From Bordetella parapertussis (GTDB lineage: Bacteria; Pseudomonadota; Gammaproteobacteria; Burkholderiales; Casimicrobiaceae), in NCBI GenBank assembly GCA_943331295.2, contig CALQLA020000025.1, forward strand, positions 1 to 64,000: 64,000 nt of DNA, read 5' to 3'. Position numbers and translations under genes: made by a program. The notes under the pieces are model-generated. The model saw nothing but the letters and a program-made list of their open reading frames with translations, was not told the origin of the DNA and searched no databases. Position 1 is the first letter of the stretch, and every line of letters starts with the position of its first letter. Shown here in pieces: positions 15,303 to 24,059 of the stretch.

Positions 15303-15860
15303 CTACTGGCATAGAGCGGGGCGTGGCTCGGCGCCGTTCACATCGCACACCCTCTTCCGCATCATCCCGTCGTTGTAATGGGCGACGCCGGGGTTGCTGC
15401 GACTCTGGCAGGCCGAATGCTGCAAGATTTGGTAGACAAGAAATCCTACCGGCACGATCTGGTCGCAGGCGTGCAGGGTCATGCACAGCGGCTTCGTTCC
15501 GCTGCCGTCGTTGACCAGCCGGCCCGCATTGTCGACCGACAGCAAGATGTCGGGAGGGATCAGTTGCCCTCCGGAGGGCGTATTCACGTACCCGAACGTC
15601 CCCGCGGGCTTCTGGACGAGGCACTGGTGCAGCGTGGGCTCCGCCGCGGTGAACTTGCCGAAGGCCACCGGGATGGTGGCCCAGGGGAAGCCGACGCGGG
15701 ACTTGATCGCGTTGGTCTGGGCGTCGATCACGGCGACGCTGTCGGTCGCCTGGTCAGCCACGTAGACGTAGCGACGGTCGGAGATGGTGATGGACGAGAG
15801 CGGCAACGCGCTCGGTGGCGCAGACATCGAGCAGGCGGCCCGCGAACCCGGCGCCTGCAT
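15303..15860 (-). CDS. YVTN-type beta-propeller-repeat-like protein, small; N-terminus uncertain
   Basis: RRYVYVADQATDSVAVIDAQTNAIKSRVGFPWATIPVAFGKF. Confidence 0.5.
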   Translation of the reverse strand: MQAPGSRAACSMSAPPSALPLSSITISDRRYVYVADQATDSVAVIDAQTNAIKSRVGFPWATIPVAFGKFTAAEPTLHQCLVQKPAGTFGYVNTPSGGQLIPPDILLSVDNAGRLVNDGSGTKPLCMTLHACDQIVPVGFLVYQILQHSACQSRSNPGVAHYNDGMMRKRVCDVNGAEPRPALCQ

Positions 15861-16023
15861 CGTCGGGCCAGGACGCGGTCTCGCCGCGCAGGACCCGGCA
15901 GAGCAGGCGAGAAGGCGAACGGTCAGGCTTTTCCTCGAGGAAAGCGTGGCCGGTCCCCTTTTCCCGGCTGTCGTTCCAGGTCAGGGCGGGTCCGGGGGGG
16001 TGTCCGCATCTCTCGACGAGCCG

Positions 16024-19000
16024 CTAGGGAGAGGCGGCTCGGCGCACCACCATGGACGGATCGCCCAGCAGGATCCAGGTGCGGCGCACGTCCATGTTGG
16101 TGGTGGCGGCCTTGGCGGCGGCGGCCGCCTCGCCGAGCGTCATCGGGGTCGCGCCGTACAGCCTACCGATCATCGCCTGGTTCATCTTGGACTGCGGCTC
16201 CGGCTCGGTCAGTCCCGACGACGCCCACACCGCCACCGCGCCACCGTTCTGGGCCTTGATCAGCGCCTTGGCCAGCGGATAGGTGTACAGGTCCTGGATG
16301 AACCCGTTGAGGCAGGTCATCGCCAGGAACACCGGCGTCCGGTCGTCATTGGCGAGCTCGAGCGCGCTGGTCGAGTCGAACAGCCCGGACCAGAGTTCGT
16401 TCGAGCCGTGGCCGACGTAGTTGACCAGGGCCTTGCCCGCATTGAGGCCGGCGAGCAGCTCGCCGTACGGGTCCGGGTCGCTGGCCTGGAAAACGTTGGT
16501 CACCGTCAGCGACCGCGGCAGCAACGCCGCCACGCTGGCGGAGTAGGGCGCGAAGTCCTCGCGCTCGTTGAGGGGGGCGCCGGTCACCAGCAGGGCCTCG
16601 TTCTTCCAGCTGGCCGGAGGCGTCGCATCGTAGCCCACGATCCGGGCCACCATCAGGTCGGCCTCGGCGGCCGACTCCGCCGGCAGGCGTCCGATCGCCA
16701 GCTCCGGCAGGCCGTCCTCGTTGAAATCGACGAACCAGTCGTCCGACGCCGTCTCCAGGAACGCCGTGTCGACCAGCTTGACCGGCAGCAGGTCGGGCAC
16801 CGTCGTGTCCATGAAGTTGCGCGGATCGAAGGTGCCGTTGCCCAGCAGCAGCACGAAGCGCGGCTTGGTCGTCCAGCCCGCCTTCGCGGTCGCGAGGAAA
16901 TTCCGCAGCGCGAACGGCGTCTTCACGCCGAAGCTGAATTCGTCGTAGATATCCTGCACGTCGATGCGCGCGACCTTGAGCCCCTTCGAGGTGCGCAGCG
17001 CCGCCAGCGGGGCGGCGCTGTCGAGCAGGCTCGCGTGGCCGAGAATCACCAGGTCGTAGCCGGCCCGCACCGCATGCCACGACGAGGGGCGGTTGGCGGT
17101 CACGGCGGGCGCCTTGATCTGGTCGTCGGTCACGGCCAGCAGCGTGCGCGTGCCGGTGCCGACGGTGGGCACGATGGTGAACGCGTAGTTCGGCGCGCTG
17201 CCGCTCACCTTGCCCGTCACCAGCGATGGGTTGGCCGGATCGGTGATGTCGAGCACCGTGATCGCCTGCGTGCCGAAGCCGCCGATGGTCGTCGTTTTCT
17301 TGACGGGGGCGGTGAAGCGCAGCTGGTCGCCGTCGGCAAGGTAGCTGTGCGGGTAGGTGAGCTGCACGTCGTCCACGACGGTCACGTCGTCCGGGCTCGC
17401 GCCGGTCAGGGTCAGCGTGTTCGGCCCTTCGTTCACCACGGCCACCGGGAAGCTCGCCTCGACGTTGGCCTGGCCCCTGAAGGACACGGCGCCCACCGGC
17501 CTCCCGTTGAGCGACACCGCCACCGCGTGCGGCCCCATGGTCGCGCCCTGCAGCCTGACGCGCAGCAGGGACGCGCCACCGGCCGGATGGTAATGCGCCA
17601 CGACGATCGGCTGATCGGTCGGCGCGTCGGTGATGATCGGCCCGAAGAAGTTGTTGCGGTCGCCGTTGGAGAGCTCCGTGAAGTAGATCGTCCGCGGCTT
17701 CCAATCGACGGTGGCCGGGAAGCTCGCCACACCGGCCGCGCCCCTGGACGTGCCGCCGGTGCTCATCCGCAGGCCCGGCGCCGCGCCGGCGACCAGCCAG
17801 TACGATTGGGTGTCCGACCAGACCGTATCGATCCCCCGGCCGTAGAAAAGGACGGCGTCGGTCGGATCGAACTTGCCCCCCTCCTCGCCGGCGACGAGGA
17901 TCGGCTGCTGCATGCCGTTGACGTAGAGCTGCAGCTTCCGCGGATCGGTCTTCGCGCTGATCCCGGCGGCCACCAACTGCGGCTGCGTGATGCGATACCA
18001 GCCTTCGGCTTTCGCCTCGAGCCGCACCGCGGGGCCGGCGGCCAGCGTGTACTGCTGCGCGACGGCGGCCGGCGAGGCGGCGCCGGCCGTGTTCGCGGCC
18101 GCGCTGACGCCCACCGATTTCAACGACAAGCTCTTGGCGTTGGGGCCCGACAGGCCGCTCACGCTGCCCACGCTGGAGAGCGGCACCGCAATGTCCGGAT
18201 CGTCCAGCGCGCCGGCGCTCCCGGTGGCCACGGGGCGATTGCGCAGCATCTGCACCGTGCCCGGGGCCCGGGTCGCGATGTCGGTCTCGGCGCCGAGCTT
18301 GGACACCGCCGGCCCGTACCACGTCTTCTTGCCGCTCAGGTCCACCTCTTCCAGCCAGTACACCGCGCCGGCACCGACGCCGCTATCGCGCCAGCGGCGC
18401 GTCTGGCCGGCGGTGAAGGTGGTGCCGGCGCCGCCGATCAAGGCCGTGCCGGCGAGCAGCGACGCGTTGAGCTTGAGCTTCTGGCCCTTCTCCTCGCGGT
18501 AGAGGTTGAAGCCGAGGTTGTTGACCTCGCGGCCGGTGATCAGCTGGATCAGGTTGCCGCTTGCGTCCGGGGTTGCGGTGAAGGACTGCAGGCGGATCTG
18601 CGTGGGCGCTGCAATCGTCGCCGTCGGCACAACCTCCCCGGTGCTCAGAATGGTCGACGTGTAGAGGCTGGTGCCATTCGAGAACAGGATTTGGGCCGAT
18701 TGGCCGGAAGAGAGGCCGGTCGCAGCGGTTCCCACGAACAACTTTCCGGCGGTGCCTCCTCCCCCGTTGTAGGGACCCGCCCAGCCGGCAATGATGAGCG
18801 TTCTGTCCGCCGTCCAGCCGACGCCGCTGCTGGCGGCAAACTTCAACGAATGAACATTGCTCCCCAGGCTGATATTCGAATCGCTCGTCAATTGCAGGGT
18901 CGACGTACTGCTGACGATCGTATTTGTGGCGATGCCCGTCGTAGCGAGCGTGCCGCCGTTCAACACCACCTGTGAAGCATAGCTGGCCGTGGTGGAGACG

Positions 19001-23698: not shown

Positions 23699-23702
23699 GA
23701 GC

Positions 23703-24059
23703 CTAGACCTCGGTTACGAGTACGGGTTCGATCAACCCGGCGCTTTGCAGGCGCGCGATGAATTCCAGCGCGTCGCCTTCCGCCGTGCCTGCGTCGACCT
23801 CGAATTCGGTGTGGACGCTTTCGACCATCTGCGCAACGGTCGTTTGGCCGTCGATGCGGTTCCAGATGAAGGAAGCCACTTCGCCGAGGTTGTAGATGGA
23901 GTCGAGGTCCCCGATGCGGCCGCGGACCGGCACGACAATGGTCTCGCCCGCTATGTTGCGAGAGGCGAATTCGCCTTTCTTCGCAAAGCAGGCGGCCAGG
24001 ATGGGCTGGCTGTGGTCGGACAAGGGCGGGATGCAATTGACATCACTATCAGCTTGCAC
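23703..24059 (-). CDS. PqqD family (RRE-like) protein
   Basis: YNLGEVASFIWNRIDGQTTVAQMVESVHTEFEVDAGTAEGDALEFIARLQSAGLIE. Confidence 0.88.
   Translation of the reverse strand: MQADSDVNCIPPLSDHSQPILAACFAKKGEFASRNIAGETIVVPVRGRIGDLDSIYNLGEVASFIWNRIDGQTTVAQMVESVHTEFEVDAGTAEGDALEFIARLQSAGLIEPVLVTEV

What the first reader, a model, noticed from the sequence alone, without database searches (positions are those of the whole stretch)
15303..24059. Candidate undescribed RiPP-type system: PqqD + rSAM/SPASM + short Cys peptide + HPr-kinase-like + S26B/PATR/C25 protein
Six closely packed minus-strand ORFs in transcription order: PqqD-like (24059-23703), rSAM/SPASM (23698-22385), 69-aa peptide (22377-22168), HprK-like (22133-21237), 1738-aa multidomain ORF (21240-16024) and a YVTN-like ORF (15860-15303). 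The first five are separated by 34 nt or less or overlap. Established: PqqD/RRE with rSAM-SPASM next to a short peptide is the hallmark of RiPP loci, and HprK-like kinases and S24/S26 peptidases occur in some RRE-containing clusters. Inference: the PATR repeats plus C25 peptidase are an extracellular or maturation arm not usually found in such loci, making this architecture potentially new.
Basis: partly seen in the sequence, partly recalled or inferred. Interest (0 to 1): 0.92.

Follow-up and report, generated by a model that had tools for sequence, protein, structure and literature searches.

The report
Radical-SAM phosphopeptide cassette with exported protease
A bacterial gene cassette, found in at least six phyla, probably makes a small cross-linked and phosphorylated peptide, and in about two thirds of sampled cases it sits beside a large exported gingipain-like protease that no peptide pathway in the literature searched here is known to use.

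Summary
Five minus-strand genes form a tight unit (gaps 4, 7 and 34 nt, then a 4-nt overlap): PqqD/RRE, radical SAM/SPASM, 69-aa precursor, HprK-like kinase, and an S26-PATR-C25 protein. The sixth ORF (YVTN) does not belong. Relatives of the rSAM occur in Desulfobacterota, Acidobacteriota, Nitrospirota, Planctomycetota, Myxococcota and one congener. Nearly all loci with enough sequence carry PqqD, HprK-like and S26-like genes; 25 further loci carry a precursor with Y..P, then C-K about 20 residues on, two more Cys and a terminal Ser. An exported PorU/gingipain-type C25 protein lies within 10 kb in 10-11 of 17 single-rSAM loci of an unbiased Acidobacteriota sample (0.03 expected). RRE + HprK kinase + archaeal-type signal peptidase is the tool set of the linear polyphosphorylated peptides (LPP, 2026) and partly of paeninodin-type lasso peptides. 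Added here are the rSAM enzyme, the three-Cys core and the C25 arm. I commit to an rSAM-modified, C-terminally phosphorylated RiPP, its leader removed by the S26 peptidase, with the C25 protein acting outside. The C25 step is the least certain. It is a new variant of a known kind. No product has been observed.

The parts
23703..24059 (-). PqqD-family discrete RRE (118 aa), presumed precursor-binding chaperone
   Evidence: Pfam PqqD 6.6e-17; conserved next to the rSAM in relatives
22385..23698 (-). radical SAM/SPASM enzyme (437 aa): CxxxCxxC (C42, C46, C49), near-canonical SPASM Cys set (C266, C284, C321, C324, C330, C333, C352) plus an invariant C-terminal HGxCxYC (C372, C375)
   Evidence: Pfam Radical_SAM 6.7e-19; below every NCBIfam equivalog cut-off; all these Cys invariant in 13 homologues
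22168..22377 (-). precursor peptide (69 aa); Y24AKP RRE-type motif; LRPDEAVLG; C44-K45, C58, C64; C-terminal Ser69
   Evidence: pattern conserved in 26 precursors: Y to C-K spacing 20-21 residues, 3 core Cys in nearly all, last residue Ser in 25 of 26
21237..22133 (-). HprK-like kinase (298 aa); H150, Walker-A K172, D189-D190
   Evidence: H150, K172, D189 invariant and D190 nearly invariant in 16 homologues; HprK/PEPCK fold
20887..21240 (-). N-terminal S26 (archaeal-type/SipW-like signal peptidase) domain of the 1738-aa ORF; triad S31/H69/D89
   Evidence: sigpep_I_arch 2.4e-12 for the isolated domain; triad invariant in 14 homologues
20701..20778 (-). hydrophobic signal-like segment (about aa 155-180) between the S26 and exported parts
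   Evidence: hydropathy and ...SAHQADA site; no signal-peptide predictor was available
18541..20700 (-). exported beta-repeat region with PATR repeats (about aa 181-900); variable between clusters
   Evidence: Pfam PATR 7.3e-20, 3 repeats; relatives carry other domains here
16048..18045 (-). PorU-like N-domain plus C25 peptidase domain (aa 1066-1731); catalytic-type His1611 and Cys1643
   Evidence: C25 1.3e-71; NCBIfam T9SS sortase 4.4e-64, below cut-off; best PDB sequence match PorU 6za2 (1.5e-37), then gingipain R 1cvr; residue positions

Best explanation
The cassette makes a ribosomal peptide by an LPP/lasso-like tailoring line to which a radical SAM enzyme was added. (1) The PqqD RRE binds the YxxP motif of the leader. 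(2) The rSAM/SPASM enzyme modifies the three-Cys core that runs from C-K to the terminal Ser, most likely by thioether or other carbon-centred cross-links. (3) The HprK-like kinase phosphorylates the C-terminal Ser, as PadeK, ThcoK and PsmK do in lasso precursors. (4) The S26-type peptidase removes the leader with RRE help, near EA|VLG or VLG|xCK. (5) The product leaves the cytoplasm, by an ABC exporter in some clusters and an unidentified route here. The co-encoded exported PorU/gingipain-type C25 protein carries out the outside step: final trimming, release, or attachment of the peptide at the cell surface. Shown by sequence: gene linkage, the conserved precursor pattern, intact catalytic motifs. 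Inferred from characterised relatives: steps 1, 3, 4. Inferred from family only: step 2. Speculative: the exact role of C25 in step 5.
For: Conserved linkage of PqqD, rSAM, precursor, HprK and S26 in six phyla. Precursor pattern in 26 loci with C-terminal Ser in 25 and Thr in 1; Ser ends 8% of long stop-to-stop ORFs in the same loci. Kinase H/K/D/D residues match the His-Lys-Asp-Asp motif reported for lasso kinases that phosphorylate the C-terminal Ser (PMC9266682). S26 triad S31/H69/D89 corresponds to LppS S29/H68/D93, the RRE-dependent leader peptidase (PMC13381572). NTP_transf_5 and an MsbA-like ABC exporter, the other LPP core genes, occur in several clusters. C25 within 10 kb in 10-11 of 17 Acidobacteriota single-rSAM loci against 0.03 expected, placed upstream or downstream of the core. 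rSAM and C25 distances correlate (Mantel r=0.88, p=0.0002). Own genome: two rSAM copies and two C25 genes.
Against: No product, expression or enzyme data. rSAM chemistry cannot be read from sequence. Five Desulfobacterota-type clusters lack a linked C25 and four Acidobacteriota clusters have neither C25 nor ABC in the region, so C25 is not essential to the whole family. Close C25 relatives also occur without any RiPP gene nearby, e.g. several in Acidobacteriota genome G743. The Planctomycetes C25 (L021) has lost the canonical GHG histidine, so catalysis may not always matter. No exporter is visible in the cassette. The 26 precursors and the 15 rSAM/C25 pairs are related sequences, so counts are not independent and the Mantel test would also be satisfied by plain co-inheritance.
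Confidence: 0.66

Rival explanations
1. The C25 giant protein is the functional target or partner of the peptide rather than its processing enzyme: the modified peptide inhibits, activates or is displayed by the exported protease/adhesin.
For: C25 proteins are about 700 to more than 3000 aa with variable beta-repeat regions and keep linkage whether upstream or downstream of the core. In L021 the catalytic His is not canonical, fitting a non-proteolytic role. Desulfobacterota-type clusters make the peptide without linked C25.
Against: In the other RiPP-linked C25 sequences where the region was read, a catalytic-type His is present and a Cys follows, which points to protease activity; gingipain-type C25 enzymes are known proteases.
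Confidence: 0.25
2. C25 is only a genomic fellow traveller: both genes belong to exopolysaccharide/cell-surface islands and are co-transferred without a shared pathway.
For: Several clusters lie among genes that look like polysaccharide genes, including L012 and the regions L007/L040 (read by eye); C25 relatives also occur alone.
Against: Enrichment in an unbiased sample is far above chance (10-11 of 17 against 0.03). In five loci C25 ends directly upstream of PqqD on the same strand; in the window and in congener G672 the S26 domain is fused in frame to the exported protein. Genome-level co-occurrence Fisher p=1.7e-5.
Confidence: 0.15
3. The rSAM/PqqD pair makes a cofactor (PQQ- or mycofactocin-like) or modifies a tetrapyrrole rather than a peptide product.
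For: Best NCBIfam similarities of the rSAM include heme b synthase AhbD, NirJ2 and mycofactocin maturase.
Against: All scores are far below the equivalog cut-offs (e.g. 124.6 vs 500 bits); a conserved short precursor with fixed Cys and a terminal Ser accompanies it; HprK and S26 are RiPP-type partners.
Confidence: 0.04

Closest known systems
Linear polyphosphorylated peptides (LPP; lppAKBSDN; Popov et al. 2026, PMC13381572)
   Same: Discrete RRE, HprK-like kinase, archaeal-type signal peptidase as leader peptidase with Ser/His/Asp triad, YxxP leader motif; NTP transferase and MsbA-like exporter in several relatives; often near polysaccharide genes.
   Different: LPPs are described as restricted to Bacillota, have no radical SAM or C25 (neither term occurs in the paper), a different precursor consensus (YxxPxVLxHQxIxFETxxS), and are phosphorylated at core Ser3 in the studied case, not at the C-terminus.
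Paeninodin/pseudomycoidin-type phosphorylated lasso peptides (PMC9266682)
   Same: HprK-like kinase with His-Lys-Asp-Asp motif, precursor ending in Ser, RRE with a [Y/W]xxP motif, nucleotidyltransferase in some.
   Different: No macrolactam cyclase or cysteine-type B2 leader peptidase seen here; has rSAM/SPASM, S26 peptidase and three-Cys core.
SynChlorMet cassette (NCBIfam ScmC/D/E/F)
   Same: HprK-like protein + PqqD-related + radical SAM/SPASM proteins.
   Different: The window proteins score far below the Scm equivalog cut-offs (ScmE 92.5 vs 400, ScmD 32.5 vs 100, ScmC 13.5 vs 125 bits).
PorU / gingipain C25 proteases
   Same: PorU-like N-domain and C25 domain with catalytic-type His and Cys.
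   Different: No C-terminal sorting domain in the ORF, which ends at the C25 domain; host lineages other than Bacteroidota; sits in a RiPP-type locus.

Membership tests
RiPP biosynthetic gene cluster | short precursor gene with conserved leader and variable core next to modifying enzymes | tested here: met
   26 precursors with a conserved Y..P...C-K leader part and variable cores
RiPP biosynthetic gene cluster | modified product detected | not testable with these tools
   needs expression and mass spectrometry
LPP (linear polyphosphorylated peptides) | RRE + HprK-like kinase + archaeal-type SpI with catalytic triad | tested here: met
LPP (linear polyphosphorylated peptides) | precursor consensus YxxPxVLxHQxIxFETxxS | tested here: not met
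   YxxP shared, rest different: YxKPxLxxxxLRPEEAVLGxCK
LPP (linear polyphosphorylated peptides) | NTP transferase and MsbA-like exporter in the cluster | tested here: inconclusive
   absent from the window cassette; NTP_transf_5 and/or ABC present in several relatives
Lasso peptide (paeninodin type) | macrolactam synthetase (C) and cysteine B2 leader peptidase | tested here: not met
   none among the six ORFs in Pfam/NCBIfam scans
Lasso peptide (paeninodin type) | HprK-like kinase with His-Lys-Asp-Asp and precursor ending in Ser | tested here: met
Sactipeptide/ranthipeptide | rSAM-installed Cys thioether | not testable with these tools
   three core Cys and rSAM/SPASM fit, but chemistry is unknown; no sactipeptide/ranthipeptide model reaches cut-off
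SynChlorMet cassette | NCBIfam equivalog scores for ScmC, ScmD, ScmE/F | tested here: not met
   window proteins and the three-rSAM relatives all far below cut-off
Peptidase C25 (gingipain/PorU) | C25 domain with catalytic His and Cys | tested here: met
   C25 1.3e-71; His1611, Cys1643 in the region that aligns to PorU and gingipains
T9SS sortase PorU | NCBIfam score above cut-off and T9SS C-terminal domains | tested here: not met
   216.7 vs 420 bits, profile matched only to position 732 of 1095

The most novel reading that the evidence does not exclude
The exported C25 protein is a PorU-like transpeptidase that attaches the rSAM-modified, phosphorylated peptide to a surface acceptor (its own repeat region or an exopolysaccharide), i.e. 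a RiPP used as a covalently displayed surface group with its own sortase, spread across at least six phyla.
Probability: 0.1. Interest if true: 0.92.

Novelty: new variant of a known kind. Interest (0 to 1): 0.72.

Why it matters
It joins two RiPP logics that no paper found here has joined: radical-SAM core modification and the RRE/HprK-kinase/signal-peptidase line of LPP and paeninodin-type peptides. It extends that tool set well beyond Bacillota, to which LPP and paeninodins were said to be restricted. It links a PorU/gingipain-type exported protease to a peptide pathway, which gives the open question of what such phosphorylated, polysaccharide-associated peptides do a concrete, testable partner. 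The fixed C-terminal Ser and the three-Cys core are direct targets for mass spectrometry.

Tried and rejected
YVTN ORF as part of the system: rejected (sub-threshold, not conserved). PQQ, mycofactocin, haem b/d1, sactipeptide, ranthipeptide and SynChlorMet membership: all below NCBIfam cut-offs. Structure of the C25 region: low confidence (pLDDT 59, only five sequences), not used. Island test at tRNA-Gly(ccc): flanking genes have no strong match in 30 relatives, so no empty site could be shown. Overlap of contigs C50 and C76: only an 84% repeat over 293 bp, so the S8-repeats-C25-S26 gene order of the second cluster is likely but unproven; the same holds for C420/C268 of G672, where no overlap was found. 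Plasmid search with the rSAM gave only relatives under 60% identity, the listed ones 26-29%. Deriving a fixed leader cleavage site: two sites fit (EA|VLG by spacing to LPP, VLG|xCK by the -3/-1 rule), left open. Reading C25 as specific to RiPP loci: rejected, since stand-alone relatives exist.
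Full report
OBSERVATION. Five form one unit in transcription order: PqqD 24059-23703, rSAM/SPASM 23698-22385, a 69-aa peptide 22377-22168, an HprK-like protein 22133-21237 and a 1738-aa ORF 21240-16024, with gaps of 4, 7 and 34 nt and a 4-nt overlap. [quoted passage not shown] The HprK-like call is weak by sequence but a confident AlphaFold2 model (pLDDT 93.5, pTM 0.90) has HPr kinase/phosphatase 1knx as its first PDB match, with PEP carboxykinases and further HprK/P entries after it. 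The YVTN-like ORF lies 163 nt further on, scores below its cut-off and has no counterpart in the other clusters searched; I leave it out.

A SECOND COPY AND A CONGENER. The same genome has a second cassette on contig C50: PqqD, rSAM (72% identical by alignment), precursor, HprK (66%), followed by an S8 subtilase with beta-repeats that runs off the contig. Contig C76 begins inside a repeat ORF that shares a repeat with the end of C50 (84% over 293 bp) and ends in a C25 domain followed by an S26 gene. The genome thus has two rSAM copies and two C25 genes. That C50 and C76 are one locus is likely, not proven. The congener G672 (record title: uncultured beta proteobacterium) has one cassette, again with the S26 domain fused in frame to a signal-like segment and an exported domain at the contig end, and one C25 gene at the end of another contig.

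RELATIVES. A scan of 85,488 genomes with the rSAM alignment found 11 relatives at 51-71% identity besides more distant ones: the congener, Desulfobacterota-type genomes, Acidobacteria, Nitrospirae, Planctomycetes and Myxococcales. Close relatives are rare in the host's own order: none of 299 others reached the threshold, nor did any of 398 others drawn from the phylum. Profiles of the cassette proteins show PqqD, HprK and S26 beside the rSAM in nearly every locus with enough sequence. C25 homologues covering both the PorU-like N-domain and the C25 domain (37-44% identical to the window) are in the cluster of L019, L020, L021 and L023, and at the edge of L022, completed in L084.

UNBIASED TEST OF THE C25 LINK. 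In 199 Acidobacteriota genomes, 23 have the rSAM at E<=1e-70 and 50 have the C25 protein at E<=1e-60; 15 have both (Fisher p=1.7e-5). Of 17 single-rSAM loci fetched from that sample, 10 have C25 within 10 kb, 11 if the G830 contig, where the two lie at opposite ends, is circular; 0.03 were expected. In five (L096, L097, L099, L100, L074) C25 ends directly upstream of PqqD on the same strand; in others it follows the core. Six lack it in the fetched region: L086, where a C25 lies about 11 kb away on the other strand, L090 (6-kb contig) and L092-L095. Five Desulfobacterota-type clusters have an ABC exporter beside the core and no linked C25, although some of these genomes carry C25 genes elsewhere. 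Distances of rSAM and C25 correlate over 15 clusters (Mantel r=0.88; two of the pairs rest on the contig links above), and on the rSAM tree presence of C25 needs 6 changes against 12.0 for shuffled labels (that labelling leaves out L080, the same cluster as L022). In the other direction the link is partial: several Acidobacteriota C25 proteins stand without RiPP genes, e.g. those of G743.

THE PRECURSOR. Twenty-six precursors share Y..P, then C-K 20-21 residues after the Tyr, a second Cys, a third Cys and a C-terminal residue 5-6 positions after the last Cys: Ser in 25, Thr in 1, preceded by Gly or Ala in 25. The script's line for C50 shows an early C-K match in its leader; read by eye its spacing is the same. 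Three were read by eye after the search pattern missed them; no precursor was recovered in L091, L014, L017 or L018 by these means. The pattern did not ask for a terminal Ser, and Ser ends 8% of long stop-to-stop ORFs in the same loci. The sequences are related, so this is not a count of independent events.

MECHANISM. HprK-like kinases PadeK, ThcoK and PsmK phosphorylate the C-terminal Ser of lasso precursors, and such kinases share a His-Lys-Asp-Asp motif (PMC9266682). The window kinase has H150, K172, D189, D190; H150, K172 and D189 are invariant in 16 homologues. In LPPs an archaeal-type signal peptidase, LppS, removes the leader with help from the RRE through S29/H68/D93, and RRE, kinase, NTP transferase and MsbA-like exporter complete the core (PMC13381572). 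The S26 domain here has S31/H69/D89, invariant in 14 homologues. [quoted passage not shown] The rSAM has 12 invariant Cys, including CxxxCxxC, a near-canonical SPASM set and a C-terminal HGxCxYC, and most likely modifies the three-Cys core; its chemistry is unknown. The C25 protein carries a signal-like segment where its N-terminus is complete and, where the region was read, mostly an intact His and Cys; L021 lacks the canonical His. Its best relatives of known structure by sequence are PorU and gingipain R. An outside processing or attachment step is my preferred role, with modest confidence.

PRIOR KNOWLEDGE. Ten full-text searches of 5.39 million open papers were run. None of the papers joins C25 or gingipain with RiPP/radical SAM terms, nor PqqD with HprK, and none holds the word SynChlorMet. 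The LPP paper does not mention radical SAM, C25, Acidobacteria or Proteobacteria. Most subscription papers and all preprints are outside that library, so a description could exist there. NCBIfam's SynChlorMet cassette is the nearest named gene set with an rSAM; all scores are far below its cut-offs.

VERDICT. A real, conserved, probably undescribed RiPP-type system; a new variant built on the LPP/paeninodin tool set. Confidence is high for the linkage and the precursor, moderate for phosphorylation and leader removal, low for the exact C25 role.

Noticed in passing
L115:18842-19336 (-) and L112:17056-17919 (-): PqqD-like domain fused to a Cys-rich C-terminal tail, beside giant C25 proteins in Acidobacteriota: possibly an RRE and core peptide in one protein.
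   Followed up: partly
L024, L098, L101, L102, L103: Loci with three radical SAM genes plus HprK, PqqD and S26 and no C25; L024 (Omnitrophota) has a precursor with LRAEEAVLTSCK and a terminal Ser.
   Followed up: partly
G743 (L108-L111, L113): An Acidobacteriota genome with at least five large C25 proteins and no detected RiPP genes nearby.
   Followed up: partly
window 24358-24431 (-): tRNA-Gly(ccc) just upstream of the cassette on the same strand; a possible integration point, not testable because flanking genes have no strong match in relatives.
   Followed up: partly
window 29878-30246 (+): 122-aa Cys-rich protein with a signal-like N-terminus.
   Followed up: no
L008:9734-13785 (+): Another PqqD-containing region in the same genome, with three radical SAM-like ORFs (read by eye); possibly haem d1-related, not checked.
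   Followed up: no
L014-L016: A REP-transposase-like ORF sits directly upstream of the rSAM in three Desulfobacterota-type clusters (identified by eye only).
   Followed up: no
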